Origin: a virus
IMG/VR virus record: IMGVR_UViG_3300033149_003820
Location: 1 to 37,776 of that record
DNA: 37,776 nucleotides
Reading direction: 5' to 3' (one strand)
Of the stretch, positions 7,093-21,921 are shown one piece after another. The notes beneath the pieces are model-generated. The model ran no database searches and was not told the DNA's origin. It saw nothing but the letters and a program-made list of their open reading frames with translations. The position numbers were made by a program, and so were the translations under genes. Position 1 is the first letter of the stretch. Every line of letters begins with the position of its first letter.

Positions 7093-7103
7093 ATATTTGG
7101 GAG

Positions 7104-7190: not shown

Positions 7191-7213
7191 TCAGCCAAAA
7201 CTTAAATAAACCT

Positions 7214-8159: not shown

Positions 8160-8200
8160 TATTGCCTCTTTTTATGCCGTTGCGATAAAAAGAGGCAATA
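8160..8200. repeat. 15-bp perfect inverted repeat (hairpin)
   Basis: ATTGCCTCTTTTTA (8161-8174) and TAAAAAGAGGCAAT (8186-8199) are exact complements with an 11-nt loop, plus one more pair outside. It lies between the two minus-strand genes, just after the stop of the first. It lacks a flanking T tract, so it is not a classical terminator; a processing or stability hairpin is possible. The AAAAGAGGCA core recurs at ~8993 and ~9014. Confidence 0.7.
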
Positions 8201-8207
8201 TCAACAG

Positions 8208-8387
8208 CTAAGCTTCGTTTAATTCTTCTAACCAATCGGATAAATCCAGTTTAGAATACTTGAAAGCATTTATTCTATACTTAAAACAATCCCAGCAAAC
8301 AATCAATCCTTTTTCTTTTTCTTTTCCACAAGCAGGACAGGTATTCATTTGTCTTGCTTCTTCTTCAGTTAATTTTTCTTTCTTCAT
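8208..8387 (-). CDS. small zinc-ribbon protein
   Basis: A 59-residue minus-strand protein with C17-x2-C20 and C31-x2-C34, followed by a helix ending LDLSDWLEELNEA. This looks like a compact zinc-ribbon adaptor. The start ATG (8385-8387) lies about 40 nt downstream of a good minus-strand promoter. It shares the LTEEEA segment with its partner gene (LTDEEA), suggesting a related recruitment motif. Confidence 0.6.
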   Translation of the reverse strand: MKKEKLTEEEARQMNTCPACGKEKEKGLIVCWDCFKYRINAFKYSKLDLSDWLEELNEA

Positions 8388-8432
8388 TTTTTTATTTTAT
8401 CTTTCCCTTATTAAACGACCTTTACTATTTAC

Positions 8433-8461
8433 ATCTTATCAAATATCAAACCCCCTGTCAA
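8433..8461 (-). promoter_or_regulatory. sigma-70 promoter on the minus strand
   Basis: Read on the minus strand: TTGACA (8461-8456), 17-nt spacer, TAAGAT (8438-8433). Its predicted start near 8426 would serve the two zinc-ribbon genes. Just upstream is TTATCGC, which resembles the TTATCCAC element next to two other promoters. Confidence 0.7.
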
Positions 8462-8544
8462 GCGATAAACCAAGAAAACAAGATATGGCGGGAAGCGTTG
8501 CTATTGCTGGCTTAAACCCCGGGCAATAAAAGAGGGAAAAAAGT

Positions 8545-8606
8545 TTATCCACAGGCAAGAAACAAAACGGCAAAAATAGGCGGAAAAATATTAAAAATTA
8601 TCCACG
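8545..8606 (+). promoter_or_regulatory. DnaA boxes in divergent intergenic region (possible origin)
   Basis: A perfect DnaA box TTATCCACA lies at 8545-8553 and a near match TTATCCACG at 8598-8606, the second ending two bases before the -35 of the next promoter. The flanks are A-rich. The region lies between divergent promoters, a common place for a phage replication origin or for host-DnaA control of transcription. Confidence 0.5.
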
Positions 8607-8607
8607 C

Positions 8608-8636
8608 TTGACAAAAGGGCTTTTTTATGATAAAGA
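8608..8636 (+). promoter_or_regulatory. sigma-70 promoter
   Basis: TTGACA (8608-8613), 17-nt spacer, TAAAGA (8631-8636). It would drive the charged protein gene at 8683 with a leader of about 40 nt. The TTATCCAC element two bases upstream repeats the layout of the promoter at 364-391. Confidence 0.65.
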
Positions 8637-8656
8637 GATATTGTAAAACAATAAAA

Positions 8657-8684
8657 ACTTATAAAAAACTTATAAAAAACTTAT
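8657..8684 (+). repeat. 11-nt tandem repeat running into a start codon
   Basis: The unit ACTTATAAAAA occurs at 8657-8667 and 8668-8678. A third copy, ACTTAT (8679-8684), merges into the ATG of the next gene. It may have arisen by slippage and gives an unstructured A-rich initiation region. Confidence 0.75.
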
Positions 8685-8967
8685 GGCGTTTAATCAGGAA
8701 TACTACGACGGCAAAAAGAAGAAACTGGATAGCAAGTTCCAAAGGAAAATAAATCAAAGCTTCCAGCAAATAATTGATATAGTCAATTTATTTTTACAAG
8801 AGCAAAGGGAACTCCGGGCGGAATATCAAGAAGTGGAGAAAGAAGAAGCGGAAAGCAAAAAGGATAGCGGGAAAAACAGCGAAAAGAACAGCGGGAAAGA
8901 GAAAGAACCGGCAAAAGAAGAGAAGAAAGAAGAGAAATCCAAATCTGCGGCAAAAGAGAAGAAATAA
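8683..8967 (+). CDS. charged low-complexity protein
   Basis: A 94-residue protein. Residues 1-55 form a helical domain (KFQRKINQSFQQIIDIVNLFLQ). The rest is a Lys/Glu/Ser low-complexity tail made of repeats such as SGKNSEKNSGKEKE. It stands alone between two control regions. It could be a DNA-binding or scaffold-like protein; no family is recognised. Confidence 0.55.
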   Translation: MAFNQEYYDGKKKKLDSKFQRKINQSFQQIIDIVNLFLQEQRELRAEYQEVEKEEAESKKDSGKNSEKNSGKEKEPAKEEKKEEKSKSAAKEKK

Positions 8968-9214
8968 TGTGATATTATATGAAATCGGGGCCAAAAAGAG
9001 GCAGTTTTCGGCAAAAGAGGCAAAAAACAACGAACAAGGATTGATTCTAAGGGCTGTTAAAGGGCAAAGAGGTATTAAACTATCCATTTGGCGGGGAAAA
9101 GAACGGGAAAAAAAGAATCCGCGGGAAAAAGAAGTAAAGGTTAGGTAAAGGGTTAGAAAGAAGATTAAAGAATAGACAAAGAATAACCCAAAGAATAACC
9201 CAAAGAATAGCAAT
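8968..9214 (+). other. purine-rich intergenic region with a 12-nt repeat
   Basis: No convincing gene is present here. The plus strand is strongly A/G-rich, which makes the minus strand look open (a 146-codon frame of Phe/Leu), but that product is low-complexity and unlikely. CAAAGAATAACC occurs at 9177-9188 and 9189-9200, with a partial third copy to 9209. Copies of AAAAGAGGCA lie near 8993 and 9014. Confidence 0.5.
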
Positions 9215-9246
9215 TTGACAACAAGGAACCGCAATAATAATACAAT
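9215..9246 (+). promoter_or_regulatory. candidate late promoter
   Basis: TTGACA (9215-9220) is followed 17 nt later by TAATAC (9238-9243), with TACAAT (9241-9246) as an alternative at 20 nt. It lies upstream of the packaging and head genes and is followed by a ~160-nt structured leader. If it drives the whole late operon it would also control the glycan module. Confidence 0.55.
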
Positions 9247-9257
9247 TAGGCAGAAAT

Positions 9258-9394
9258 CCTTATTTTATAAGGGTTAAAGCAATGTCGGTTAATCGATATT
9301 GTGCGACATTTGTGCGATATATGTGCGTTATAGGGGGGGTAGGTTCGGGTTTCCAAGTTTGGTTTTATTATATATATCACCCCCATAGGTTTTT
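9258..9394 (+). promoter_or_regulatory. structured late leader: palindrome, three 11-nt iterons, attenuator-like stem
   Basis: CCTTAT/ATAAGG (9258-9263 with 9267-9272) forms a small hairpin. Three 11-nt units beginning TGTGCG lie at 9300-9310, 9311-9321 and 9322-9332, and the first can also pair with AATGTCG at 9281-9287. GGGGGT (9335-9340) pairs with ACCCCC (9379-9384), followed by a T tract (9390-9394) as in intrinsic terminators. The arrangement suggests a regulated leader ahead of the late genes. Confidence 0.5.
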
Positions 9395-9413
9395 CCCAAA
9401 ATAGACAAAATAT

Positions 9414-9647
9414 ATGAATAAATGCTTAAATTGTAATAAAACATTGGAACAAACAGAAGGCAAAAAAGAACGTAAATTCTGTTCGGATAAGTGCAGAATG
9501 TCCTATAATCGCAAAAGCGAACAGAAAATAATCAAAAGCGAACAGAAATCGGGCAAATCCGAACAACTGGCGTTTGCCGAATTATTGGAAACAATCGCCG
9601 AGAAGGGAGGAACGTGGCGTTTCCTTGGCAGGCAGTTTGAAATATAA
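9414..9647 (+). CDS. small FCS/treble-clef-type zinc protein
   Basis: A 77-residue protein with C4-x2-C7 and C23-x3-C27 (KFCSDKCRMSYNRK), the pattern of small phage zinc fingers often encoded near terminase. A KSEQ-type repeat follows, then a short C-terminal domain (ELLETIAEKGGTWRFLGRQFEI). Its stop codon lies in the first of three TTTGAAATATAA repeats. A role with DNA during packaging is only inferred from position. Confidence 0.6.
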   Translation: MNKCLNCNKTLEQTEGKKERKFCSDKCRMSYNRKSEQKIIKSEQKSGKSEQLAFAELLETIAEKGGTWRFLGRQFEI

Positions 9648-9671
9648 TTTGAAATATAATTTGAAATATAA
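9636..9671 (+). repeat. 12-nt tandem repeat, three copies
   Basis: TTTGAAATATAA occurs three times exactly (9636-9647, 9648-9659, 9660-9671). The first copy ends the preceding gene and the array precedes the small terminase start. A further near-duplication, AAAAATATG/AAAAATTTATG, follows. Confidence 0.85.
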
Positions 9672-9690
9672 ATAAAAATATGAAAAATTT

Positions 9691-10143
9691 ATGAAAAATA
9701 AAGAAGAAGCAATCAAACCGACAATCAAACAAAAAAAGGCGTTCAAGATAATGCTTCAAAAGATGATGGACAAGAACCCAGTTACGATGGGGGAAATTCT
9801 GTTAGAAGCGGGGTTTTCGCCTTCCACCGCCAGAGTGCCGAAATTGGTTACAAACAGCAAAGGGTGGCAGGGCTTGTTAGACCAGATAGACGATTCCAAA
9901 ATACTGAACAAATTATACGAGATAGCGTTGGACGACAGCGACAAGAGGGCTTGTTTGCAGGCGATAGACCAGATTATCACAATAAAGAACAAGAAGCCCA
10001 AGCAGGACGCCAAAGTTATCGGTTTGTTTGAAAAAGTGAGCGACTTACAATTAAATCCAGATGATAAATCGAACACTGCTCCAGAAGAAGATAAACTTCC
10101 TACCCCACAAGGGACAGGCGGAAGTCCTGAAATGCAGGAATGA
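9691..10143 (+). CDS. terS: terminase small subunit
   Basis: A 150-residue protein with a DNA-binding helix-turn-helix in its first third (KQKKAFKIML, then GEILLEAGFSPSTARVPK). Next come VTNSKGWQGLLDQ, an oligomerisation-type helical region and a disordered Pro/Glu-rich tail. These are typical of small terminases that recognise phage DNA and regulate the large subunit. It directly precedes and overlaps the large terminase gene by 83 nt. Identification rests on the HTH pattern and synteny. Confidence 0.8.
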   Translation: MKNKEEAIKPTIKQKKAFKIMLQKMMDKNPVTMGEILLEAGFSPSTARVPKLVTNSKGWQGLLDQIDDSKILNKLYEIALDDSDKRACLQAIDQIITIKNKKPKQDAKVIGLFEKVSDLQLNPDDKSNTAPEEDKLPTPQGTGGSPEMQE

Positions 10144-11392
10144 CGAGGTTATAATTTGCGCTGGAAGGGGTTGGGGAAAATCCGCCGTTTGCGGGTATAT
10201 TGTAGTAGAGTTCTTTTTAAACAGGTTGTTTGAAATAAAGCAGGGAAAATACGATTCCTGCAAAATATGGGTAGTAGCTTCAAGTTACGAGCTTACTTCG
10301 AAGGTTTTCGAATACGTGGTGCGGTTTCTTTTGGCTTACGACAGGCAGTTCGGCAGGTATATTTCGGGAGGAAAGGGCGGAAGACCATACCTTCTTAAAA
10401 TATCGGAATCAATTTGGATACAATGCAAGAGTTCCAGCGAACCAGTTTCATTATTAGGGGAAAGGGTAGATTTGGAAATATGCGACGAAGCGGCTTTGAT
10501 ACCGAAAAAGATTTACCACCAGAATATAAAGCCGAGCATTTCAGCGTTAGGGGGAAGAATATACTATATCGGCACTCCCAGAGGGGAAGGGTGGTTCAAA
10601 GACAAGTTCAGGATACTGAAAGAAAAAAATGCCTCTTTCCATTTCACTTCGGCGGAAGGGAAGCATTACACCGAAAAAGCGTTGGAAGCTTTGAGAAAAG
10701 AAACGCCTGAGAGATTGTTCAATCAGGAATATCTGGCGGAGTTTATAGACGACGCTGGAAGGGTGTTCAGGAGGGAAAAAATAGAAAGCATTACGGAAAA
10801 CTGCGAATCTGACGCAGTAGAGAATCACAATTACATTATGGGGGTTGATTTGGCGGAAACGACTGACTGGACGGCAATTTCGGTGTTTGACGCAAATACC
10901 AAGAAGCAGGTTCATTTTGACAGGTTTCAAAAGCGTGATTACCCATTGCAGAAAAAGCAGATAATAGCCAAAGCGTCAAGATACAACAACGCAAGGGTGA
11001 TAATGGACACCACGGGGGTGGGGAAGCCGATTTACGAGGATTTGATGAACGAGGGATTATTCGTGGAGGATTTCACCTTTACGGGCAGAAGCAAAGAGGA
11101 ATTGATAGGAAAGCTGATAGTGGCGATAGAGGAAAAATATATCCGACTTATGCCGATAGAAATACAGAAAGACGAACTGGAAGCGTTCGAATACAAGTTC
11201 CTTAACGAGAAAACGGGACTTCCCTTAAAAAACATACAATACGGAGCGCCGCAGGGCTACCACGACGACTGCGTCGATTCCGTGGCGTTGGCTGTCTGGG
11301 GGTTGAGCCCCGGAACGCCAAAAAGAGAAAATACTATCTTAAAAGCGTTAAAAAGAAGAATAAAACCAAAGTTGATTCAAAGCGATATTTAA
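10061..11392 (+). CDS. terL: terminase large subunit
   Basis: A 443-residue packaging ATPase-nuclease. Walker A is CAGRGWGKS (33-41), Walker B LEICDEA (138-144), and the coupling motif region is YYIGTPRGEGW (168-178). The RNase H-like nuclease follows, with acidic residues at D263 (IMGVDLAETTDWT), D316 (VIMDTTGVG) and D402/D403 (YHDDCVD). It cleaves concatemeric DNA and drives it into the prohead through the portal. The start at 10061 keeps the usual N-terminal segment (FLPHKGQAEVL), although it overlaps the small subunit gene in another frame. Confidence 0.95.
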   Translation: MINRTLLQKKINFLPHKGQAEVLKCRNDEVIICAGRGWGKSAVCGYIVVEFFLNRLFEIKQGKYDSCKIWVVASSYELTSKVFEYVVRFLLAYDRQFGRYISGGKGGRPYLLKISESIWIQCKSSSEPVSLLGERVDLEICDEAALIPKKIYHQNIKPSISALGGRIYYIGTPRGEGWFKDKFRILKEKNASFHFTSAEGKHYTEKALEALRKETPERLFNQEYLAEFIDDAGRVFRREKIESITENCESDAVENHNYIMGVDLAETTDWTAISVFDANTKKQVHFDRFQKRDYPLQKKQIIAKASRYNNARVIMDTTGVGKPIYEDLMNEGLFVEDFTFTGRSKEELIGKLIVAIEEKYIRLMPIEIQKDELEAFEYKFLNEKTGLPLKNIQYGAPQGYHDDCVDSVALAVWGLSPGTPKRENTILKALKRRIKPKLIQSDI

Positions 11393-11410
11393 AAATTATG
11401 CCAAAAAATT

Positions 11411-11542
11411 ATGCCAAAAGGTAAATACGGAACAAAATACGGAACAAAAGACGGAAGCCAAAAAGGTTGGAAAAGGGGCGGAGGCGGAAGAAACCGAACT
11501 TCCAAATGCCGACACCCGTCAATAAAAAAAGGAAGAAAATAA
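11411..11542 (+). CDS. small basic Gly-rich protein
   Basis: A 43-residue protein rich in Lys, Gly and Arg, ending CRHPSIKKGRK. It starts in the second of two duplicated aaaaattATGCC segments (11391-11415), and its N-terminus contains a duplicated KYGTK. Tiny basic proteins between terminase and portal are frequent in phages, probably nucleic-acid or head associated. Too small for confident assignment. Confidence 0.5.
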   Translation: MPKGKYGTKYGTKDGSQKGWKRGGGGRNRTSKCRHPSIKKGRK

Positions 11543-11543
11543 T

Positions 11544-11666
11544 ATGCCGTTCAAAAAAGTTAAAGGCGGTTACAAAAGTCCCTCTGGCAGAAAATACACG
11601 GCTAAACAGGTTCGTGCCTATTATGCTACGAAGGGCTGGAAAAGAAAGCCGAAAAAAAAGAAATGA
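11544..11666 (+). CDS. small basic protein
   Basis: A 40-residue Lys/Arg-rich protein (KGGYKSPSGRKYTAKQVRAY, then a KKKK end). It starts one nucleotide after the preceding stop and ends in an ATGA overlap with the portal gene, which supports translation. The SPSGRKYTAKQVRAYYATKGW pattern resembles small phage head-region proteins of unknown role. Confidence 0.55.
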   Translation: MPFKKVKGGYKSPSGRKYTAKQVRAYYATKGWKRKPKKKK

Positions 11667-13420
11667 TTGATAAATTTGAAATAATAAAGAACGAAGTTAA
11701 TTTTTACAAGAATACTTCGTTAAAACAAAATCCAGCATTCGCTCCGAGGATGGGCGATGTTTACGAGCTGATAGACCTGTTTTCTGTTTCGAGATTCAGG
11801 GACGGGGACAGGGACGAGCTTGGATTCAGAAAGGTATTTTACAATATCGTCAATTTCGTCGTGGATGTCTGTGCCAAAATGCTGGATATAGACACCAAGC
11901 ATATCTACCTCACGGCGGAAAATGGTATGTCCTACTGGACATCGTGGCTGATGCAGAAGGAGCTTAAACTATGGATGAAGGACAAGTATTTCGCAAGGCA
12001 GTTGAACGAATACTGCTTGAAATGGCCGAAATACGGCGACCTCTGGGTAAAGAAAGTGAAAGACGATGTGAAGTGGGTTCCTCCCCAGAATATGATTTAC
12101 AGGGTCAATGCCACCGATTACAGGACGATACCGCTTATAGAAAGGCACGAATACGGGGCTGACGAATTGAGGATAGTGGGAAATAAAAAGGGCTGGAATA
12201 ATGTTGAAGATGTGATAAGTGCTTCAAGCGTTTCTTCCCAGACGCCCGCTGGATACGGAAGCACTATGGGAGTCAAGGAAGAAAATGTGAATACTGGAAT
12301 TGTGATTTATGAAGCTTGGTTTCCAAAAGGTTATTTAGACAAGGAAAAGAACAACTGGTTTGTCATTTCAAAAGATTCCGACAAAGTTCTGGCGGAAGCC
12401 GAAAAGAAGGATTGCCCTTATAAGAAACTCCCTTGGGAAAAACTGCCTGGAAGATTGCCAGGCAGGGGAAGGGTTGAGCAGTTGTTCGAGGAACAGATTT
12501 ACCTCAACAGGATAGCCAATTACAAATCAGCGGGATTTCATTGGACTTCAAAGCATATTTACCAGACGAAATATACGGGTATAGAGAAGAATTTGATGAC
12601 TCAGGTTGACAACGGGGAGATATTGATAAATCCTTCTCCGATAGAGCCAGTCGTGAATGAGGAGAGAAACTTGTCCGCTTATGCGGTGGACGAGGTAAGG
12701 TGGGGGCAAAACGCCCTTAAAAAGACATTTACGACAGAGCCAGTAGGCGGAGGTGCGGCGCAAAAGGGAGTTACCCTTGGTGCGAACATTTTACAGACAC
12801 AACAGGCAACCGCTTTCTACAAACAGAAAAGAGAGGAACTCGCCAGTTTTGTGAAGGAGATTTTATGGGACTGGATTCTTCCGCAGTTTGCCGACCAGAA
12901 AAGAAAAGAGCATAAAATACTTATGGAGAACCTGCTGTCGGGCGAGGATAAAAATTCCGAGAAGTTCTTTAATTTGAAATTGAACGAGAGAATGAACCAG
13001 TTGAGAGCCAAAAGCAAATATCTGTCTCCCGACCAATGGAGAATAAGAAGGTCTATTCAAGCGGAATTGCTTAAAAAAGAAAATCTCACTATTCCGAAGG
13101 GATTTTATGACGATATAAAATACAAGATAGACATACAAATTACGGGCGAACAGATTGACATAGCTGGAATATCCCAGACGATTGACACGATGATTATGAT
13201 GTTGGGTCAAAACCCTGGCGTGCTTGACGACCCGAGAATAAGAAAAATGCTTTACAAGAGGATTGACCTTCTCGGGCTTAATCCGAAAGATTGGTTTGAC
13301 GAAGAAGTAAAATCTTTGCCTGATGAAGCAAGAATGTCCAGAGTTCAGCGTGGAGGAAGCATTGCCTCTCCCACCCCGATAAGCAGTCCGGCTATGGTTC
13401 CAGCCGAAGCGACATTATAA
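11663..13420 (+). CDS. portal protein
   Basis: A 585-residue protein in the portal position between terminase and scaffold/capsid. Characteristic segments are an N-terminal helical domain (RKVFYNIVNFVVDVCAKMLD), the clip/stem region with PYKKLPWEKLPGRLPGRGRV, and a long helix (YLNRIANYKSAGFHWTSKHI). A crown-like acidic/helical C-terminus follows (QTIDTMIMMLGQNPGVLDDP), and the tail is disordered. It would form the dodecameric ring at one capsid vertex through which DNA passes. The length is typical for podovirus-like portals. Confidence 0.85.
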   Translation: MIDKFEIIKNEVNFYKNTSLKQNPAFAPRMGDVYELIDLFSVSRFRDGDRDELGFRKVFYNIVNFVVDVCAKMLDIDTKHIYLTAENGMSYWTSWLMQKELKLWMKDKYFARQLNEYCLKWPKYGDLWVKKVKDDVKWVPPQNMIYRVNATDYRTIPLIERHEYGADELRIVGNKKGWNNVEDVISASSVSSQTPAGYGSTMGVKEENVNTGIVIYEAWFPKGYLDKEKNNWFVISKDSDKVLAEAEKKDCPYKKLPWEKLPGRLPGRGRVEQLFEEQIYLNRIANYKSAGFHWTSKHIYQTKYTGIEKNLMTQVDNGEILINPSPIEPVVNEERNLSAYAVDEVRWGQNALKKTFTTEPVGGGAAQKGVTLGANILQTQQATAFYKQKREELASFVKEILWDWILPQFADQKRKEHKILMENLLSGEDKNSEKFFNLKLNERMNQLRAKSKYLSPDQWRIRRSIQAELLKKENLTIPKGFYDDIKYKIDIQITGEQIDIAGISQTIDTMIMMLGQNPGVLDDPRIRKMLYKRIDLLGLNPKDWFDEEVKSLPDEARMSRVQRGGSIASPTPISSPAMVPAEATL

Positions 13421-13450
13421 AAAAAGATGAAAAAAGATGAAAAAAGATAT
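13421..13450 (+). repeat. 10-nt tandem repeat, three copies
   Basis: aaaaagatga occurs at 13421-13430 and 13431-13440, then aaaaagatat at 13441-13450. Each copy carries or leads into an ATG, so the next gene has several closely spaced start codons in different frames. Confidence 0.8.
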
Positions 13451-13673
13451 GAATAAACTGACAAAATACGAAATAAACTTTATAAGGAAGAACGAGGAAG
13501 TGATTAAGAGCATTCTTGAAAAGAGGATTGACGAACTTAAAGACGAGATTTTAGAAGTCCCAGAAGAAAAGAGGGAAAACTTAATAAACTTCATAAAGGA
13601 ATACAAATTCGGTCTGGGCTTTTTGAAAGAATTAGCGAGCGATAAGAAATCGAATTATTTTACAGGGATTTAA
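13437..13673 (+). CDS. hypothetical head-region protein
   Basis: A 78-residue charged helical protein (KYEINFIRKNEEVIKSILEK, later KRENLINFIKEYKFGLGFLK). It lies between portal and scaffold. ATGs at 13437 and 13449 are both in frame. Possibly a small head-assembly factor; no motif is recognised. Confidence 0.55.
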   Translation: MKKDMNKLTKYEINFIRKNEEVIKSILEKRIDELKDEILEVPEEKRENLINFIKEYKFGLGFLKELASDKKSNYFTGI

Positions 13674-13705
13674 CATAAAGTATTTAACATAAAGTATTTA
13701 ACATC
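13668..13705 (+). repeat. 14-nt tandem repeat, about 2.7 copies
   Basis: ATTTAACATAAAGT occurs at 13668-13681 and 13682-13695, with a partial copy to about 13705. The stop of the previous gene (TAA) lies inside the first unit. It sits in the ~100-nt gap before the scaffold gene. Confidence 0.8.
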
Positions 13706-13777
13706 AAGGTCGGGAGAGAAAACTCCTTAAAACAAAAATAAATCAATTTGTCAGAAAAGACATTAAAATCAAAAATT

Positions 13778-14359
13778 ATGGAAGAGGAAACAAAAACGGA
13801 GACAGAAACGGAGACAGAAACGGAGACGGAAACTCCTAAAAAAACCAACGAGGAAGCGGAAACCTCTGAATCCGCAGACCCAGAAAAGGGTGAAAAATCA
13901 ATTGATAGGCAGCCGACTTCCGAAGAGTTCAGAGCGGTTGACGGGGCAAGAAAGCATTTTGAGGAAGAGAACAAAAAACTCAAAGACAAGATTGCCAAAC
14001 TTGAAACTGCTTCAAAATCAAATGCGGGCGACCCTATGGAAGCCGTAAGATTGGGAAAAGCTCTTGGGAAGCACAGCGAGGAGGAAATAGATATTGTTGT
14101 TACTTACGCCAAAGGAAAGTTCAACACTCTAACTCCTACTCCTGACCAAATTATCCAGTCCTCAAAGGATAAATTTGTTAAAACTGCCATCAAAGGATTG
14201 AGGGAAAAGGTTGAGAGTGAAAAAAAGACACCTGAACCTTCTTCCCCATCTCCAAATATCGGAGGCAAAACGCTTGATGATATAGAGAAGATGGACAAAA
14301 ACGAGTTTGCTAAATTAGCAGGCAAGGAATTGAGAAAGGGAAGAAGTTCGGGGATATAA
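13778..14359 (+). CDS. capsid scaffolding protein
   Basis: A 193-residue acidic, mostly disordered and helical protein. It opens with a Thr-Glu repeat (MEEETKTETETE...) encoded by 12-nt tandem repeats. A coiled coil (RKHFEEENKKLKDKIAKLE) follows, then a C-terminal helix-rich end (DDIEKMDKNEFAKLAGKEL). Position just before the major capsid gene and composition match scaffolding proteins, which template prohead assembly and are then removed. The ATG at 13778 follows aaaaatt; a TTG at 13748 is less likely. Confidence 0.75.
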   Translation: MEEETKTETETETETETETPKKTNEEAETSESADPEKGEKSIDRQPTSEEFRAVDGARKHFEEENKKLKDKIAKLETASKSNAGDPMEAVRLGKALGKHSEEEIDIVVTYAKGKFNTLTPTPDQIIQSSKDKFVKTAIKGLREKVESEKKTPEPSSPSPNIGGKTLDDIEKMDKNEFAKLAGKELRKGRSSGI

Positions 14360-14363
14360 ATAA

Positions 14364-15376
14364 ATGGCATACATAGCAGATGACAAGTTTGATGTGTTCC
14401 GTCCTAAGATAAAATTTGGGTCGTGATAAATCTTCTCTGATTGACTCGGAAGCTGAAATGCCAACGAGGCGGAAGGCGAAAGCCACCGTGAACGACTGAG
14501 TGAGAAGACACCGAAAGGTGATGCAACAGTCTGAACATACGGGAATAGAAACCGTATGAGGATAATCCGAAGCGGTTATCCCGCCCGAAAGGGTAGTAAC
14601 ATATTTGGAATTATGGATATGCGGCTAACTTTTTCAGGAACTATTCGGCTGATGTAATGAATGCGGATATAGTTCACATTCCTCATTTTGATGAATTGAA
14701 CTCTACCGTATCGGACATTGCTGTTACATCAGGTGACGTAACAGCGGTCAATTTGGGCGACACAAAGACAAATTTGACCGTTGATGCTTGGAAAGGAGCT
14801 GCGTTCTATATTTCGAAGTTTGAAAGGAGAGAGATAATGAAAAGACCGAGCATAATTGACGAATACGCAAGCTATCTTGGATACAGATGTGCAAGAAACG
14901 CTGAAATCGCAATCCTCGCCAATCTTGGGAGTTTGTCGGCAAGCGTCGGAGATAGTTCTCACGGCATTTACTCGACCAACATAGAATCGGCATTCGGAAT
15001 TTTGGAATCAAATAGTGTTCCGAAAGAAGAATGTAGAATCTTTGTTAGACCTAAGAACTACTGGCAGGACATAATGAGTATTCAGAAATACTACGATGCA
15101 TCCCAATTTGGAAGAGCAACACTTCCATTTGGAGTCCACGATATGCTTTATGGGGTAGGAATTACATTGACAAGCAATGTTCCCGATGTAGCGAATTCAG
15201 GTTTGAACAATGCTATTGTTCACCCTGGAGCTATCGCATTTGCAATGTTTGGTCCCGATTTTTCAGCCAGAACTGGCGAACATTTGAGGACAAAACTTAT
15301 TGCTGATGTAATGTATGGGGACACGATACTTCAGAAAACTTGGGGCGTTAAGCTACGAAGCACGACTGCGGTATAG
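14364..15376 (+). CDS. major capsid protein (HK97-type), split by a group I intron
   Basis: Exon 1 begins MAYIADDKFDVFRP (14364 to about 14405) and would stop soon afterwards if read through. Exon 2 (about 14609-15376) continues NYGYAANFFRNYSADVMN and includes DIVHIPHFDELNS, FYISKFERREIMKRP, ARNAEIAILANLG and a C-terminal DVMYGDTILQKTWGVKL. These match HK97-fold capsid proteins of about 270 residues. With the proposed splice sites the product is 269 aa. The exact splice positions are inferred from pairing and frame; flanking alternatives change only a few residues. It is expected to be the most abundant virion protein. Confidence 0.8.
14406..14608 (+). ncRNA. ORF-less group I self-splicing intron
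   Basis: All core helices can be placed in order. P3 is TCTTCTC (14431-14437) with GAGAAGA (14502-14508). P4 is CTCG/CGAG (14445-14448 with 14465-14468). P6 is 14469-14472 with 14486-14489, and P6a is GGC-GAAA-GCC (14475-14484). P7 is GACTG (14494-14498) with CAGTC (14527-14531), and P8 is CACC/GGTG (14509-14520). P9-type hairpins lie at 14537-14557, 14560-14581 and 14584-14593. P1 would pair exon CGTCCT with GGGTCG (14418-14423), giving a U.G at the 5' splice site. Exon AATT can form P10, and the intron ends in G. No endonuclease gene is inside. Confidence 0.85.
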
Positions 15377-15406
15377 TATTAACCATTAACCTTGTGGTGG
15401 TCGTTT

Positions 15407-15447
15407 ATCGGGTATTTACCAGACGAACAATACCCGATGGCGTCTGG
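15407..15447 (+). promoter_or_regulatory. two interleaved inverted repeats after the capsid gene
   Basis: ATCGGGTATT (15407-15416) pairs with AATACCCGAT (15429-15438). CCAGACG (15419-15425), inside that loop, pairs with CGTCTGG (15441-15447) outside it. The topology is the same as at 415-513. The structure lies between the capsid gene and the first glycan gene, so it may reduce or switch expression of the glycan module. No T tract follows. Confidence 0.65.
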
Positions 15448-15509
15448 AAGCGACTATTAGAAGCGACTACTGAAAGCGACTACTGGAAGCAATTATTGAA
15501 AGCAACTAT
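15445..15509 (+). repeat. 13-nt tandem repeat, five copies, ending in a start codon
   Basis: Five units of the form TGRAAGCRAYTAY lie at 15445-15457, 15458-15470, 15471-15483, 15484-15496 and 15497-15509. The last unit supplies the A and T of the ATG (15508-15510) of the first glycan gene. Copy number changes would alter the spacing from the upstream hairpins, not the reading frame of the gene. Confidence 0.85.
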
Positions 15510-16395
15510 GAAAAAATTAAAAATAATATATTTAGCCAACTTCAATAACAAGAACTCCAATTATGTGGAGGAGGATATTAAATCCGCTCTCGAAGAGTTA
15601 GGACACGAAGTAGTGCCAGTCCACGAAAAGGATTTCAAGAAAGTGCTTGACATAAAGGCGGATATGTTGCTTTTTCACAAAGCGGGAATTGGCAGATACA
15701 TAAGTTTAGAAGATTGGATATTTATGCTGAACCATATCACCTGTAAGAAAGTGATGTGGTATTTCGACCCTATTTACCTTTTCGGCAAAAGGGAAATGGA
15801 GATAGAAACTATCGCCGAATACATAGATTACGGGTTCTTGGTAGATGACACTTGGAGAAGAAGGCACAAATACAAAAACCTTTATTCTCTTAAAGAGGGA
15901 ATAGGAACAATTTACAAGGGAAAAGTGAGAGAGGAGTTCAAATGCGACATTGCTTTTATGGGAAACATTTACGGCAAGAGAGAGGAATTTGTCGGAATAC
16001 TTAAAAGGAAATACGGGGACAAGTTCAAGGTGTTTGACAATGTGTTCAGGCAGGATTTGGCTGACGCCTGCGTATCGGCAAAAATAGTGGTAGCGCCGGA
16101 TTTTCCAACTGACGAGTTCTACTGGTCTTCAAGATTTTACCTTACGCTTGGGCTGGGCGGATTTCTTGTCCACCCAGACGTTTACGGGTTGAGGGAGGAA
16201 TTTGAGGAAGGAAAGCATTTTGCCGGATACAAGGGATTAGAGGAGCTTGTTATGACGATTGATTACTTTTTAGAAAACGAAAAAGAAAGAAAGGCGATAC
16301 AGGAACAAGGTCAAAAAAGATGCCTTAAAATCGGAACATTTAAAAACAGGTTAAAGGAAATGCTTAAAATTATATATGAAACTCCAACATCTTAG
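15508..16395 (+). CDS. CgeB-like GT-B glycosyltransferase
   Basis: A 295-residue protein with a Rossmann-like N-terminus (KLKIIYLANFNNKNSNYVEE) and a C-terminal donor-binding region (SSRFYLTLGLGGFLVHPD, then LREEFEEGKHFAGYKGLEELVMTIDYFL). The latter is typical of CgeB/Glyco_trans_1_2 proteins, which transfer a sugar from a nucleotide donor to glycan or protein. The ATG at 15508 is preferred because residues before it derive from the 13-nt repeat. It opens the glycan module and overlaps the next gene by 20 nt. Donor and acceptor are unknown. Confidence 0.75.
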   Translation: MKKLKIIYLANFNNKNSNYVEEDIKSALEELGHEVVPVHEKDFKKVLDIKADMLLFHKAGIGRYISLEDWIFMLNHITCKKVMWYFDPIYLFGKREMEIETIAEYIDYGFLVDDTWRRRHKYKNLYSLKEGIGTIYKGKVREEFKCDIAFMGNIYGKREEFVGILKRKYGDKFKVFDNVFRQDLADACVSAKIVVAPDFPTDEFYWSSRFYLTLGLGGFLVHPDVYGLREEFEEGKHFAGYKGLEELVMTIDYFLENEKERKAIQEQGQKRCLKIGTFKNRLKEMLKIIYETPTS

Positions 16396-16651
16396 AGGTT
16401 TAGACCAAGATTTAAAAAGGGGCTTGAAATACAACAGAAGGCACGGGGGAGTGAGCGATGTATTGAGGAGAACAATGAGAAGACCATCTAAATCAGGGTG
16501 GAGAATGAATGCTATAAGTTCGATAGACAACGGAATGGGAAAATGCGACAATTGCGGGAACGATGCAGAGTTCAGAAGTATTGTTAACGGAGAAATAGAA
16601 TACCAGTTATGCAGGAATTGTTTCGCTAAAAGAAATAAAAAAAAGAAATAA
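16376..16651 (+). CDS. small basic zinc-binding protein
   Basis: A 91-residue protein with C57-x2-C60 and C79-x2-C82 flanking a short beta hairpin (FRSIVNGEIEYQL), a small zinc ribbon. The N-terminal half is Arg-rich. Its place between glycosyltransferase and methyltransferase does not explain its role. It could be a regulatory or nucleic-acid-binding protein carried with the module. Confidence 0.55.
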   Translation: MKLQHLRGLDQDLKRGLKYNRRHGGVSDVLRRTMRRPSKSGWRMNAISSIDNGMGKCDNCGNDAEFRSIVNGEIEYQLCRNCFAKRNKKKK

Positions 16652-16656
16652 AAAAA

Positions 16657-17256
16657 GTGTTCAACGCAAAAAATTACGATAAAATATATCCCGACAGAAA
16701 AAAAGAGATTGACTTTCTTTTAGAACATCTTGAAGGGAAAAAAGTTATTGATATAGGAGGAGGAACAGGAAAAATAGCGGAGGAACTCAATAAAAAAGGA
16801 TTTGAGTGCTGGAATGTTGAACCGCAAATCGAAATGGCTGAAATATCGAGAAGTCGTGGAGTGAAGACAATTTGGGAAAGCGGTGAAAACTTCAAAACAG
16901 GAATTATATTTGACAATGCGATAATGATGTTCAATGTGTTCAACTTCTTGGACAATCCGCATAAAGTATTGGAAAACATATCTGGGATATTGAGCGGAAA
17001 GCTTATATTTACCTATTGTAATTACGAGGTAAGAAAAAAGGGCTGGGAATTTAACTGGAAACTGAAAAGATTGTCAAGAAAAAGGTGGAACGGGGACGAA
17101 GTCAAAATAGATTTCTGGTTTCCGTTTTTCCACGAAAGGCACATAATGAGAGTTTATCCGCATAAAGTTATTGAAAAAATGCTTTACAGGAACGATTTTA
17201 AGATAATTGACAGGTTCAGGACAAAATACGAAACAATAATAATAGCGGAAATATGA
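16657..17256 (+). CDS. class I SAM-dependent methyltransferase
   Basis: A 199-residue protein starting at GTG. Motif I VIDIGGGTGKI (30-40) binds S-adenosylmethionine, with an acidic residue after strand 2 (NVEPQ) and the motif IV-like region (DNAIMMFNVFNFLDNP). The fold is that of Methyltransf_11/23. In this setting it probably methylates a sugar hydroxyl or amine, but the substrate cannot be read from sequence. Its stop overlaps the next start (ATGA). Confidence 0.75.
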   Translation: MFNAKNYDKIYPDRKKEIDFLLEHLEGKKVIDIGGGTGKIAEELNKKGFECWNVEPQIEMAEISRSRGVKTIWESGENFKTGIIFDNAIMMFNVFNFLDNPHKVLENISGILSGKLIFTYCNYEVRKKGWEFNWKLKRLSRKRWNGDEVKIDFWFPFFHERHIMRVYPHKVIEKMLYRNDFKIIDRFRTKYETIIIAEI

Positions 17257-18173
17257 GAATATCGTATGTAGGCGGAACACACAATTATATGGATTACTTC
17301 ATATTGGAGTTAAGAAAGCTCCGACACGAAGTATTGGTGAACGATTGCGATAAGGACTGCGATGTAATCCTGTGCGAAAACAGAAATCAATGGAGGACAG
17401 CGAGGTATTTCAGGACAAAATATCCCGACATCCCCTTAATCTGCTGGAACTGGGACTGGTATGATTATTTGAAAGATGAAAATGGAAAGTTCAGGTCAAC
17501 TGGAATGTTTGGCGAAGCGAATAATTATATTGAATTTAACAAATTGATAAAAGAAAGTTTGGAATTATGGAGCGTATCTCCCGAAACAGGAGAGAATTGC
17601 GAGAAAGATTTGGGAGTTAAGAGCAAGTTCTTTTACAAATACTTTTGTCTTCCTTGGGAATGGGAAGGCGAAAAAAAAGATTGGGGTTATATCTTGCAAT
17701 CGTCAAGGGACGACCCGAATAAGAGATTTGACTGGTATGAAAAATGTGCCGAGGAACTTGGAATACCATACAAATCAACCCACCCGCCTGGCTCTGCTGT
17801 CGCAGGAACTATGGGGAATACGAGAGAGGACTACATCAGGACAATGAAAAACTGCCGATTTAATGTATTGGCTTCAAGAGAAGAATCTGGTGGCGGAACA
17901 TCAACCATAGAGGCGTCATACTGCCACAAACCAGTATTGGTATCCGACAATGGCGGAGCGAAGTTCTTTTGGGAAGACGATATTTGGTATTTTAAGAAAG
18001 ACGATTACGGCGACTTTAAGAGAATGATGAAATGGCTGTGGGAGAATTACGACAGCAAAGAAGTGAAAGAAAAAACAGAAAGGGCATACCAAAGAGTGTG
18101 CAGAATGTTTTTCCCCGAACATTTTGCCAAACGAATTAGCGATAGGTTGGAAATATGCTTAAACAAGAAATAA
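17253..18173 (+). CDS. GT4-like glycosyltransferase (paralogue 1)
   Basis: A 306-residue GT-B enzyme. The N-terminal acceptor domain has WNWDWYDY. The C-terminal domain has LPWEWEGEKKDWGYILQSSR, DPNKRFDWYEKCAEELG and the donor-site segment SREESGGGTSTIEASYCHKP (about residues 209-228), similar to the EX7E region of GT4 enzymes. It is clearly paralogous to the enzyme at 18562-19422 and separated from it by a GNAT gene. They probably arose by duplication and add successive sugars. Confidence 0.75.
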   Translation: MRISYVGGTHNYMDYFILELRKLRHEVLVNDCDKDCDVILCENRNQWRTARYFRTKYPDIPLICWNWDWYDYLKDENGKFRSTGMFGEANNYIEFNKLIKESLELWSVSPETGENCEKDLGVKSKFFYKYFCLPWEWEGEKKDWGYILQSSRDDPNKRFDWYEKCAEELGIPYKSTHPPGSAVAGTMGNTREDYIRTMKNCRFNVLASREESGGGTSTIEASYCHKPVLVSDNGGAKFFWEDDIWYFKKDDYGDFKRMMKWLWENYDSKEVKEKTERAYQRVCRMFFPEHFAKRISDRLEICLNKK

Positions 18174-18565
18174 AAGAGTTTTTCAAGGCGATAAAGGGGG
18201 ACAGGTTCTTTCACCCGTTTCCTTTTACAGATGAAACGATAGACATCATTTTGTCGGCAAAGAAAGACATCTACCGCTTTATCAAAGAAGGGGAGAAAAT
18301 AAACGGGGAGAAAATAATCGGTATGTTTATGTTAAGGGGCTGGGACGAGGGATACGAGATACCTTCGTTTGGAATGGTAGTCCACCCAGAATACAGGGGA
18401 AAAGGTCTGGGAACATTTATGCTGAGGCAGGCAGTAAGTTTATGTAGGAAAATGGAATGTAAAAAAATTAGATTGACGGCTGACAAAGATAATAAGGTTG
18501 GGATTTATATGTATAAAAGAGAAGGGTTCAAGTTCAATAAAAATGTGGCTTTCAAAAACTTATGA
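18155..18565 (+). CDS. GNAT-family acetyltransferase
   Basis: A 136-residue protein with the acetyl-CoA-binding motif VHPEYRGKGLGTFML (76-90; R81-G-K-G-L-G86) and the later segment KVGIYMYKREGFKFNKNV. It transfers an acyl group from acyl-CoA to an amine. In a cluster making an amino sugar (perosamine) the natural guess is N-acetylation of the 4-amino group, but this is inference. It overlaps the preceding gene by 19 nt and the next by 4 nt. Confidence 0.75.
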   Translation: MLKQEIKEFFKAIKGDRFFHPFPFTDETIDIILSAKKDIYRFIKEGEKINGEKIIGMFMLRGWDEGYEIPSFGMVVHPEYRGKGLGTFMLRQAVSLCRKMECKKIRLTADKDNKVGIYMYKREGFKFNKNVAFKNL

Positions 18566-19422
18566 AGAATAATTTTAAGATAGCATTTATTACGCCCGAA
18601 AATGATTGGAGTATCAATCTCATACCAGAGTTAATAAAATTAAGGCACGAAGTATTGTTAAACAGGTGCGAGCCAGATTGCGATGTCATATTCGCCATAG
18701 AAAGGACATTGTCGGAGTTTACTATGAGATTACACAGGAAATATCCGCATATTCCGTTAGTTGTAAACAACTGGGACTGGTATGATTATGTGCCGAAAGA
18801 TAAGGGAACTTATCCTATATTTATTCAACTGCTGAAAGAAGCGAAAGATGTCTGGTCGGGCGATATGGATACAGCTGAAAGAACTAAAAAAGCGATAGGG
18901 ATTAAGAGCGAATTTCCCCTCTACATATTCATAATGCCGTGGGAGTGGAAGGGCGAGAAAAAGGACTACGGATATATTATGTTCGGTTCAAGGCGAGACC
19001 CGAATAAGAGATTTGACTGGTTTATGAAAGCGTCAGAGGAGTTGGGGATACCATACAAAGCGTATCACCCAGAAGATAACGACAGGCAGGATTACATCAA
19101 CACCCTTAAAAATTGCTCGTTCTATGTTTCCGCCAGCAGAGAAGAAGGAGTGTGTATTCCGGTAGCAGAGGCAAGTTATTGTAAGAAAGCGTTTTTATCG
19201 CCAGACAACAAAGGTTGCCGTGAAATGTGGGGGAATAACACAACCTATTACAAGACAGACGATTACGAGGATTTCAAGGCAAAGATAAAATACCTGTGGG
19301 AAAACTACAAAGGCAAGAAAATACAGGGAAGAATAGAGAAGTGCTACAAAATTGTAGAGGACAGGTTTCTGCCAGACAAAATGGCGGAAAGGGTAATAAG
19401 AAGATTAGAAAAAATTTTATGA
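18562..19422 (+). CDS. GT4-like glycosyltransferase (paralogue 2)
   Basis: A 286-residue paralogue of the enzyme at 17253. It shares NWDWYDY, MPWEWKGEKKDYGYIM, DPNKRFDW and the start of each domain. The donor motif is a clean EX7E (REEGVCIPVAEASYC, about residues 193-207). The differing acceptor domains suggest different positions in one glycan. It is joined by ATGA overlaps to the GNAT and LicD genes. Confidence 0.75.
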   Translation: MKNNFKIAFITPENDWSINLIPELIKLRHEVLLNRCEPDCDVIFAIERTLSEFTMRLHRKYPHIPLVVNNWDWYDYVPKDKGTYPIFIQLLKEAKDVWSGDMDTAERTKKAIGIKSEFPLYIFIMPWEWKGEKKDYGYIMFGSRRDPNKRFDWFMKASEELGIPYKAYHPEDNDRQDYINTLKNCSFYVSASREEGVCIPVAEASYCKKAFLSPDNKGCREMWGNNTTYYKTDDYEDFKAKIKYLWENYKGKKIQGRIEKCYKIVEDRFLPDKMAERVIRRLEKIL

Positions 19423-19979
19423 CATTGAAAAACAGATGGAAGTTTCTTTTAGAAGTAAAATCGGTTCTGGATAAGGCGGAAATACCTTTCTGGATAGATT
19501 TCGGGACACTGCTTGGATTTTACAGGCAGGGGGATTTTCTTGAAACAGACCCAGACATAGATTTGGGGATTAAGAGAAAATATCAGGATAAGGTAATAGA
19601 GATAGCGCCGGAACTTTCAAAAATAGGAAAAGTGATAACAAGGGTTGATATAGGAAACGGGCGGTATTTAGCTGGATACAAGATTTACAGGGACGACCTC
19701 TGGATTGACATTGCTTTTTTCTGGGAGTGCGAGGGAAAGTATATTCTGCCAATATCCCAATGGGAAAAGGTGATGGTGTTCAAAAAGGAATACTACGATA
19801 ACTTGACAGATTTGGAAATAAAGGGGGTAAAGTTCAAAATGCCAGAAAAGATAGAGGAGTATCTTATTCTACATTACGGGGAGGACTGGCGGAGACCATT
19901 CAAAAAAGGGGAAGAATACGATTTACACAAATGTCCAAATGTCGAGTCAAATAAAAAATATAAAAAATATCTAATATGA
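19419..19979 (+). CDS. LicD-family phospho(phosphono)transferase
   Basis: A 186-residue protein with the LicD/nucleotidyltransferase-fold signature FWIDFGTLLGFYR (24-36) and metal-binding DPDIDLGI (44-51). LicD enzymes transfer phosphocholine from CDP-choline to glycans. Here the neighbours make a CMP-activated phosphonate, so the likely reaction is transfer of the phosphonate headgroup to a sugar of the glycan. The ATG at 19419 overlaps the previous stop (ATGA). At 186 residues it is near the short end for the family, but the core is complete. Confidence 0.8.
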   Translation: MTLKNRWKFLLEVKSVLDKAEIPFWIDFGTLLGFYRQGDFLETDPDIDLGIKRKYQDKVIEIAPELSKIGKVITRVDIGNGRYLAGYKIYRDDLWIDIAFFWECEGKYILPISQWEKVMVFKKEYYDNLTDLEIKGVKFKMPEKIEEYLILHYGEDWRRPFKKGEEYDLHKCPNVESNKKYKKYLI

Positions 19980-20461
19980 AGATTTTTACAAATAAGATAA
20001 ACAAAAAAAATATAGACAAGTTTGTTATTGTGATAGGTGGCGGTGCGATTATGGATAAGGCGAAAATATACGCCAAGAAGCACAAGAAGTATTGTATAGC
20101 GATTCCGACAACTGGCTGTGGTGCGTCTGAAACAACCCACGCTGTCGTCTGGGGAAAGAAAAAGAAAAATGTAAAGACGGACAAGCCGTTGACAATAATC
20201 CCGCCATTTAAAATTAAATTATCAAAAAAAGACAGAAGGAACACCTGCCTTGATATGATAGGACACTTGGTTGATTACCTGAATGTCTGCTCGGACAACG
20301 AAGTGGTTGAAGCTGGTATATTTATGGGGAAACTTATAGAGAAGCACCCAACAAATCTTACTCACCCTGCTTCATATCCCTTGACATTAAAGGGTATGCC
20401 TCACGGGGAGGCGGTCGGAAAAGTATTATGCGATTCAATTAAAAAAGCGTTTAAGATATGA
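19976..20461 (+). CDS. miniature iron-containing alcohol dehydrogenase (phosphonoacetaldehyde reductase-like)
   Basis: A 161-residue protein, less than half the usual ~380 residues of the family, yet with the key parts kept. The dinucleotide site is GGGAIMDKAK (21-30), and PTTGCGASETTHAV (44-57) follows. Metal ligands can be placed at D93 and H97 (CLDMIGHLVD), H130 (LTHPASYPLT) and H143 (GMPHGEAVG). The ASYPLT..G.PHG segment resembles phosphonoacetaldehyde reductases (PhpC-type). Adjacent PEP mutase and decarboxylase make reduction of phosphonoacetaldehyde to 2-hydroxyethylphosphonate the likely reaction. Loss of helical segments could affect stability. Confidence 0.65.
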   Translation: MKIFTNKINKKNIDKFVIVIGGGAIMDKAKIYAKKHKKYCIAIPTTGCGASETTHAVVWGKKKKNVKTDKPLTIIPPFKIKLSKKDRRNTCLDMIGHLVDYLNVCSDNEVVEAGIFMGKLIEKHPTNLTHPASYPLTLKGMPHGEAVGKVLCDSIKKAFKI

Positions 20462-21204
20462 GGGTCATAGAGGTTCATTCAGGATTAAGTGCGTTGTTGG
20501 CTGACAAATCAGATTATACGGGGGTATGGGTCAGCTCGCTTACCCACGCCGCTATTCACGGGCTTCCAGACAATGAATTAGTGCCGTTGAAAGAGAGAGT
20601 TGATTTCGTGGCAGAAGTCAGGCACATCACAAAAAAGCCGATAATAGTTGATATAGACACAGGCGAAAGTATTGAACATCTGCCTTATCTGATAAGGTGG
20701 TTCTCCGAAGCGGGTGCTTATGCCGTGATAATGGAGGACAAAAAATATCCCAAACAGAACTCCCTTTTAGAGAACGCAAAACAGCAGTTGGAAGATGTTG
20801 ATGTATTCTGCGACAAGATAAGGGTAGCCAAAACAAGTTGCGGGAAAATGAAAGTATTTGCCAGATTGGAGAGCTTGATAGCCAAAAGGTCGAAATACGA
20901 GGCGATTTTAAGGGCGGAGGCGTATATTGAAGCTGGGGCTGACGGAATAATGGTTCATTCAAAACAAAAAGTGGACAGCACGGAAGTTATGGAAGTGGCT
21001 GATGAGTTAAGAAAGAGATATCCAAAACTGACGCTGATAGCAGTGCCGACAACATACAAACTGCCAGAGAAACACCCGTTTGATATTGTGATTACGGCAA
21101 ATCACCTTTTAAGAGCAAGTTTAACGGCAATGAAAAAGTTTCTTGCGGGGGAAGAAGTAGAATTGGCTTCCGTTCAGGAAATCTTTGACATCTGCGGACA
21201 TTGA
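20458..21204 (+). CDS. pepM: phosphoenolpyruvate mutase (PEP phosphonomutase)
   Basis: A 248-residue TIM-barrel enzyme of the isocitrate lyase superfamily. It has VDIDTG (64-69) for metal and substrate binding and the exact mutase signature EDKKYPKQNS (E93-D94-K95-x5-N101-S102), which separates PEP mutases from lyases. ARLESLIA and AYIEAGADGIMVHSK also match. It converts PEP to phosphonopyruvate, the step that makes the C-P bond. The equilibrium favours PEP, so a decarboxylase must follow; it does, immediately downstream. Overlaps on both sides are 1-4 nt. Confidence 0.92.
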   Translation: MRVIEVHSGLSALLADKSDYTGVWVSSLTHAAIHGLPDNELVPLKERVDFVAEVRHITKKPIIVDIDTGESIEHLPYLIRWFSEAGAYAVIMEDKKYPKQNSLLENAKQQLEDVDVFCDKIRVAKTSCGKMKVFARLESLIAKRSKYEAILRAEAYIEAGADGIMVHSKQKVDSTEVMEVADELRKRYPKLTLIAVPTTYKLPEKHPFDIVITANHLLRASLTAMKKFLAGEEVELASVQEIFDICGH

Positions 21205-21554
21205 TGATTACAGGCATACCAGATAAAGTTTTAATAAAATGGCTCGGCAAGAAAGATTACATAAAACCAGCTGACGAGGGCGAGGCAATAGGAATAGCAG
21301 GTGGTTATTACTTAGCCACGGGAAAACGGGCAAAAGTATTTATGAGTGCCGACGGGTTCTGTAATGCCTTGAACCCATTGACTTCGTGGGTGATACCAGA
21401 AAAGATAAAAATGAACTTGGTAATAAGCACGGGCAGGAAAGAGCCACAGCACAGGGAAATGACAAGAATGCTGAAATCGTTGATAAAACTTCTAAAATAT
21501 GACCTAAAATATGACCCAAAAAGAATATCTTTTAAGATTATCACGAAAAAATAA
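21204..21554 (+). CDS. phosphonopyruvate decarboxylase, N-terminal (PYR) subunit
   Basis: A 116-residue protein with the PYR domain of phosphonopyruvate/sulfopyruvate decarboxylases: GIPDKVLIKWL, then ADEGEAIGIAGGYYLATGK with the Glu that activates thiamine diphosphate, NALNPLTSWVIP, and GRKEPQHREMT. In most phosphonate producers (Ppd, Fom2) this is fused to the TPP-binding domain; a separate alpha subunit is known in archaeal sulfopyruvate decarboxylase (ComD). It would pair with the next gene product to make phosphonoacetaldehyde. The ATG at 21204 shares a base with the previous stop. Confidence 0.82.
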   Translation: MITGIPDKVLIKWLGKKDYIKPADEGEAIGIAGGYYLATGKRAKVFMSADGFCNALNPLTSWVIPEKIKMNLVISTGRKEPQHREMTRMLKSLIKLLKYDLKYDPKRISFKIITKK

Positions 21555-21921
21555 GAATGCGATTATCGTTGGTTCGCTGGGAACAATATCAAAGGATTTA
21601 GAGCAGATTAAACATAAGAACAAGATTTTAGTCAAGGGGGCAATGGGCTGTGTTATGGGAGTGGGGCTTGGTATAGCGTTGAACACCAGAAAAAAGGTAA
21701 TCGTGGTTATAGGGGACGGGGCGTTTCTTATGAAAATGGGAAGCATATCAACGATACTTAAATACAAGCCGAAGAACCTTAAAATAATAATAATAAACAA
21801 CGGCTGTTATGCCTCCTGCGGGGGACAGCCGACAAACTTCTATGCTTATTTTAATGCCGGCAACCTGCGAAATAATCACAGCAGGGCATATAAAGTGTTT
21901 AAAGTGGTTGAGACGACATAA
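21511..21921 (+). CDS. phosphonopyruvate decarboxylase, TPP-binding (PP) subunit
   Basis: A 136-residue protein with AIIVGSLGTISKDLEQ, then GAMGCVMGVGLGIAL. The thiamine-diphosphate motif is GDG-x25-NN (VVIGDGAFLMKMGSIST...IIIINNG), and GGQPT follows. It completes the enzyme with the upstream PYR subunit, with which it overlaps by 44 nt. The C-terminus after GGQPT is short and rich in polar residues, and the last 80 nt overlap the cytidylyltransferase gene in another frame, so the usual final helices may be changed. Confidence 0.8.
   Translation: MTQKEYLLRLSRKNKNAIIVGSLGTISKDLEQIKHKNKILVKGAMGCVMGVGLGIALNTRKKVIVVIGDGAFLMKMGSISTILKYKPKNLKIIIINNGCYASCGGQPTNFYAYFNAGNLRNNHSRAYKVFKVVETT

What the first reader, a model, noticed from the sequence alone, without database searches (positions are those of the whole stretch)
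14406..14608. Compact group I intron in the major capsid gene
The capsid frame stops 18 codons in, but a ~203-nt segment carries a full set of group I pairings (P3, P4, P6, P7, P8 and three P9-type hairpins). A P1 is possible with U.G at the 5' site and a P10 at the 3' exon, and the segment ends in G. Joining the exons restores a capsid N-terminus. It has no homing endonuclease. Capsid expression would then depend on RNA splicing, and the intron sits in the most highly expressed late gene.
Basis: partly seen in the sequence, partly recalled or inferred. Interest (0 to 1): 0.8.

Follow-up and report, generated by a model that had tools for sequence, protein, structure and literature searches.

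The report
Self-splicing intron in phage capsid gene
The phage's main head-protein gene is interrupted by a short self-splicing RNA (a group I intron) that belongs to a large family missed by the Rfam library and found very often in head-protein genes of uncultured phages, although the copy in this particular record also carries a small deletion just behind the intron that would break the spliced gene.

Summary
The feature is real. It is a compact, endonuclease-free group I intron of 202 nt (14406-14607) in the major capsid gene. Rfam's group I model finds nothing here, but relatives settle the matter. A covariance model built from 62 homologous phage introns, without the window, hits it with 155 bits (E 1.5e-39). 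The helices P3-P9.1 covary strongly across those homologs. Two related capsid genes have an empty site, and a third has an intron at the identical site with a LAGLIDADG endonuclease ORF in P6.

(1) The 3' splice site is after 14607, not 14608; this gives a 5-bp P10. (2) The window lacks 35 nt of exon 2 (between 14617 and 14618) that an otherwise identical contig has. Correctly spliced, the window's capsid frame ends at TAA 14626-14628; in the identical contig it is intact. Assembly error or genuine variant cannot be told.

It is concentrated in major head protein genes, at about 11 positions in one coat gene and up to three per gene. The nearest experimentally spliced relatives are the mycobacteriophage Baka and LittleE introns. 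Splicing here is inferred, not shown.

The parts
14364..14405 (+). capsid exon 1 (14 codons, MAYIADDKFDVFRP)
   Evidence: aligns with N-terminus of intronless relative L002 (MAYINGFVDNKYDVFRP|EVWTPR)
14406..14607 (+). group I intron, 202 nt, preceded by U and ending in G
   Evidence: covariance model R1 built without the window: 14427-14601, 155.2 bits, E 1.5e-39; empty-site and same-site relatives fix both ends
14401..14422 (+). P1: exon GTCCT (14401-14405) with guide GGGTC (14418-14422), U.G at the 5' splice site, one U-U mismatch
   Evidence: read from sequence; same arrangement CCT|AAG...TTTGGG in L127
14413..14417 (+). guide half of P10 (AATTT), pairs with exon 2 GAATT 14608-14612 (5 pairs incl. 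one G.U)
14431..14508 (+). P3: 14431-14437 with 14502-14508 (TCTTCTC/GAGAAGA)
   Evidence: 6 of 7 pairs show two-sided changes in homologs
14445..14468 (+). P4: 14445-14448 with 14465-14468, enclosing a weak P5
14469..14489 (+). P6 (14469-14472/14486-14489) with P6a GGCGAAAGCC 14475-14484; this loop is where the LAGLIDADG ORF sits in L127
   Evidence: 5 of 6 pairs covary; L127 ORF
14494..14531 (+). P7 (14494-14498 with 14527-14531, GACTG/CAGTC); P8 14509-14520; J8/7 14521-14526
   Evidence: P7 paired in 62/62 homologs, one pair with two-sided changes, four invariant
14536..14594 (+). P9 (14536-14558), P9.1 (14560-14581), P9.2 (14583-14594)
   Evidence: P9 5 of 6 and P9.1 8 of 8 pairs covary; P9.2 by sequence
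14608..15376 (+). capsid exon 2, carrying a 35-nt deletion between 14617 and 14618 in this copy
   Evidence: PHROG 267 major head protein, E 3.5e-7 (scanned from 14609); deletion relative to L133

Best explanation
A 202-nt group I intron (14406-14607) interrupts the phage major capsid gene after codon 14. In the pre-mRNA, exon 1's CCU pairs with the guide GGG (P1, U.G at the splice site); a guanosine bound in P7 attacks after U14405; exon 1's free 3' end then attacks after G14607, helped by P10 (AAUUU with GAAUU), joining the exons and releasing the intron. The intron is the endonuclease-free form of an element that in a relative (L127) carries a LAGLIDADG gene in P6 at the same site, so it most likely spread by endonuclease homing and later lost, or never had, the gene. 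Shown here by comparison: identity, boundaries, structure, presence/absence pattern. Inferred: catalysis, splicing in cells, homing. In the window's own copy a 35-nt deletion in exon 2 would make the correctly spliced capsid end early; the otherwise identical contig G001 has an intact spliced frame.
For: R1 model without the window: 155 bits, E 1.5e-39. Covariation over 62 homologs, 0/500 shuffles, slid controls 41-46% paired against 96%. Empty sites in L002 and L128; same-site intron with LAGLIDADG ORF in L127. Intact spliced proteins for L001, L127 and L003. L003's P22-like coat gene, annotated as two pieces, is joined by removing its homolog. Baka intron, spliced in vivo by RT-PCR in PMC3706429, hits R1 (31.3 bits) and Rfam group I (28.6 bits, E 1.5e-4).
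Against: No Rfam group I hit at any threshold used for this intron or for six family loci. Four of five P7 pairs are invariant, so P7 covaries little. P1 is short with a mismatch. No RNA evidence. The window's own spliced frame is broken.
Confidence: 0.95

Rival explanations
1. A once active intron in a lineage whose capsid gene is now defective: with 35 nt of exon 2 missing the capsid gene is dead, so the record represents a degraded or helper-dependent phage.
For: Deletion between 14617 and 14618; correct splice gives stop at 14626-14628.
Against: Zero substitutions over 19.6 kb against G001, with two other clean gaps (45 and 96 nt), looks more like an assembly or amplification gap than decay; the deletion junction occurs in no other viral contig searched.
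Confidence: 0.15
2. The window's deletion is real and splicing has shifted by one base to G14608, giving an in-frame capsid that lacks 12 residues (RPNYGYAANFF).
For: The frame is open with that junction.
Against: P10 would be weaker; the segment around WTPRV(T/S)RFFR is nearly identical in four related capsids; the chance of restoring the frame by accident is one in three.
Confidence: 0.05
3. Not an intron: a structured 5' region, with the capsid translated from an internal start (ATG 14657).
For: ORF 14657-15376 is open.
Against: Conserved residues upstream of it are encoded in exon 1 and the start of exon 2 in intronless relatives; homologous insertions occur at many places inside other coat genes.
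Confidence: 0.02

Closest known systems
Mycobacteriophage LittleE major capsid intron and Baka tail intron (PMC3706429)
   Same: Group I-type intron in a virion gene; one with a reverse-strand endonuclease ORF, one without; U before and G at the end; Baka matches R1 (31 bits) and shares the 3' AGUAACA motif.
   Different: LittleE matches R1 only weakly (14.5 bits); different hosts, sites and capsid families; those two reach Rfam's group I model below its cut-off, this one not at all. Their splicing was shown by RT-PCR.
T4-type phage introns (td, nrdD; subgroup IA)
   Same: Same core helices P3, P4, P6, P7, P8, P9; td and nrdD share AACGACUA/UAGUCUG in P7 (td from memory; nrdD).
   Different: nrdD has a long insertion between P7 and P3 where this has about 3 nt; R1 gives T4 nrdD only 12.8 bits, Rfam gives nrdD 105 bits and this none.
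Group I introns of crAss-like and Jug phages (PMC7886860, PMC12363816)
   Same: Introns in core genes, MCP among them in crAss-like phages; several per gene; Jug introns about 206 nt on average; splicing of many Jug introns supported by metatranscriptomes.
   Different: Those introns were not compared with R1 here; subtype relation unknown.

Membership tests
group I intron | conserved core helices P3-P8, P4-P6 and P7 | tested here: met
   (96.1% of cells paired, strong covariation)
group I intron | U.G pair at the 5' splice site within P1 and G as last intron base | tested here: met
   U14405.G14418; G14607; boundaries fixed by relatives
group I intron | intron removal restores the host protein as in empty-site relatives | tested here: met
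   met for L001, L127 and L003; not for the window copy, which lacks 35 nt of exon 2
Rfam RF00028 (Intron_gpI) | score at or above the family's cut-off | tested here: not met
   no match. This is a test of the Rfam model, not a defining feature of group I introns: RF00028 is reported not to cover group I diversity (PMC6125680, PMC11878797); linked indirectly through Baka
group I intron | guanosine-initiated self-splicing | not testable with these tools
   needs an RNA experiment
group I subgroup IA (usual in phages) | P7.1/P7.2 insertion between P7 and P3 | tested here: not met
   only 3 nt (AGT, 14499-14501) between P7 and P3 here; about 3 nt throughout the family
a named GISSD subgroup (IB4, IC3, ID, IE...) | best score with that subgroup's covariance model | not testable with these tools
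   subgroup models not held

The most novel reading that the evidence does not exclude
The intron belongs to an undescribed subgroup of group I introns, widespread in uncultured phages and some bacterial or archaeal genome records, invisible to Rfam, that has specialised on major head protein genes, occupying about 11 sites in one coat gene and up to three per gene.
Probability: 0.5. Interest if true: 0.65.

Novelty: new member of a known kind. Interest (0 to 1): 0.5.

Why it matters
Group I introns in phage capsid genes are known but rarely recognised. This family is missed by the standard model, so phage capsid genes that hold it can be annotated as two or more pieces or as starting inside exon 2 (as in GenBank MW202674). 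A covariance model for the family would repair such annotations and lets one ask why a splicing element is tolerated, or kept, in the most highly expressed virion gene, and why head genes are hit so often. A conserved target, as for other homing elements, is the simplest answer but is untested here.

Tried and rejected
Rfam at the gathering threshold and up to E 10, on the window and the segment alone: only chance matches. Rfam group I model in the window's own record through the genome search: nothing. blastn of intron plus exon 2 in plasmids: nothing. Looking for other copies of the window's deletion junction: none. Repeat-mediated cause of the three gaps: junction homology is only 0-2 nt. 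A second intron of this family in the window: none found by R1 up to E 10. An endonuclease gene elsewhere in the window was not searched for systematically. Papers: no description of this family found in the held library; subscription papers are not held. Structure prediction was not used because it does not bear on an RNA question.

Full report
What is in the sequence. The capsid start ATG 14364 reads 20 codons to a TGA at 14424-14426; the long capsid frame resumes downstream and is a distant major head protein (PHROG 267, E 3.5e-7), lying after a terminase large subunit and a portal-like gene. The stretch between can be folded into P1, P3, P4, a weak P5, P6/P6a, P7, P8, P9, P9.1 and P9.2. 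Folding energy alone is only moderately unusual (z -2.5), and Rfam has no hit at any threshold used. On the window alone the case would therefore be suggestive only.

Relatives decide it. blastn in phage records found one match, 73% over the core, in MW202674 (isolate ctn9Y15), between two pieces annotated 'P22 coat protein'. These share CTGATTGACTTGGAAG, CAGGGCGCAAGC, GTGAACGACTAAGTGAG, GATGCGATAGTCTGAAC and a 3' end GTAACAGAATG. R1, built from 62 nonredundant members without the window, hits the window once, 14427-14601, 155 bits, E 1.5e-39 (E-values from this model are rough).

Structure. On those 62 sequences the structure including the P7 pseudoknot is formed in 96.1% of cells (shuffled 74.1%), with 591 two-sided changes (166) and covariation score 0.60 (0.19); no shuffle reaches these; slid partners give 41-46% paired. 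P3, P6, P8, P9 and P9.1 covary richly; P4 and P7 are nearly invariant, as expected of a catalytic core. The structure was partly derived from this alignment by RNAalifold, which favours it over the slid versions; the size of the gap does not come from that alone.

Is it group I? The order P3-P4-P5-P6-P7-P3'-P8-P7'-P9, the U before and G at the end of the intron, P1 with U.G and the P7 motif all say so. Rfam fails on six family loci too, although it finds T4 nrdD at 105 bits. A bridge exists: the Baka intron, shown to splice by RT-PCR (PMC3706429), matches both R1 (31.3 bits) and RF00028 (28.6 bits). Published work states that RF00028 does not cover group I diversity (PMC6125680; PMC11878797). 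Only 3 nt separate P7 from P3, so the P7.1/P7.2 insertion of IA introns is absent; the subgroup is otherwise undetermined.

Boundaries. Intronless relatives: L002 reads FRP|EVWTPRVSRFFRQRLYAANFF and L128 FRP|ELWTPRVTRFFREKLYAANFF. L127 has an intron at the same position, CGTCCT|AAGAATCAGTTTGGG ... AACAAATTG|GAACTCTGGACACC, with a 156-aa LAGLIDADG ORF (Pfam LAGLIDADG_1, E 1.6e-5) in P6. So exon 1 ends at 14405 and exon 2 starts at 14608. With this junction exon 2 GAATT pairs with AATTT 14413-14417 as P10.

The 35-nt gap. Contig G001 (IMGVR 3300033141_002047) matches window 6058-25540 with no substitution but has 45, 96 and 35 nt that the window lacks, at 9173/9174, 9569/9570 and 14617/14618. 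The last is exon sequence encoding conserved residues. G001 spliced gives an intact capsid beginning MAYIADDKFDVFRPELWTPRVTRFFRQKLYAANFF; the window spliced at the same site gives MAYIADDKFDVFRPELWICG and a stop. Whether the gap is an assembly or amplification error or a real variant cannot be decided here; three clean gaps without one substitution favour an error.

The family. Of 74 nonredundant downstream exons, 29 match PHROG 1357, 13 PHROG 283 and 3 PHROG 9953, all 'major head protein' (overlap between these counts not resolved); others match portal, tape measure, ribonucleotide reductase and endolysin genes. In the P22-like coat gene, 37 introns fall at about 11 positions, with up to three in one gene (positions are estimated from tblastn starts, so neighbouring ones such as 384, 388 and 393 might merge). 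R1 finds about five matches in one contig (L046, L048). The sample is whatever the scan returned before its limit, and the nonredundancy filter is weak, so the bias to head genes is strong but not measured. In 84,980 bacterial and archaeal genomes the pattern occurs in 18 stretches; most of those also have an R1 match above 70 bits; whether these are prophages was not checked.

How it works, and novelty. The intron should fold in the nascent capsid mRNA and splice by the usual two guanosine-initiated steps. Capsid synthesis then depends on splicing, since the unspliced frame stops after 20 codons. All of that is inference from family membership. A capsid intron is precedented (LittleE; MCP introns in crAss-like phages, PMC7886860), so the intron itself is a new member of a known kind. 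The larger, Rfam-invisible, head-gene-rich family may be an undescribed subgroup; this needs the GISSD subgroup models, which are not held here.

Noticed in passing
window 14617/14618, 9569/9570, 9173/9174: The window lacks 35, 96 and 45 nt relative to an otherwise identical contig (IMGVR_UViG_3300033141_002047); the 96-nt gap shortens a small cysteine-rich ORF (9414-9647) in frame from 109 to 77 aa. Possible assembly or amplification gaps.
   Followed up: partly
L127:1873-2500: Same-site capsid intron of 628 nt with a LAGLIDADG ORF (1944-2414) in P6: an endonuclease-bearing counterpart of the window's mini-intron.
   Followed up: yes
L003 (MW202674.1 record 16569-18084): GenBank annotates the P22-like coat of ctn9Y15 as two genes plus a hypothetical protein inside the intron; removing 268 nt (L003:2947-3214) joins them, with an 8-bp P1 by eye.
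   Followed up: yes
L123 (OR420741.1 record 35056-35455): Roseobacter phage CRP-118 ribonucleotide reductase is annotated as two genes with an R1 match of 97.6 bits between them.
   Followed up: partly
L137 (uncultured Methanomicrobiales MAG contig CAIYHQ010000095): Two strong R1 matches (156 and 93 bits) on a contig binned as archaeal; may be a phage or archaeal virus contig.
   Followed up: no
window 5107-5315: Array of 12-nt repeats (about TGCGGCTTGGGA) inside ORF 4676-5449 (DUF7666), coding for a repetitive stretch.
   Followed up: no
window 17652-17785 and 18937-19070: Two diverged copies (71% identical) of a 134-nt stretch 1285 nt apart, suggesting a duplicated gene segment.
   Followed up: no
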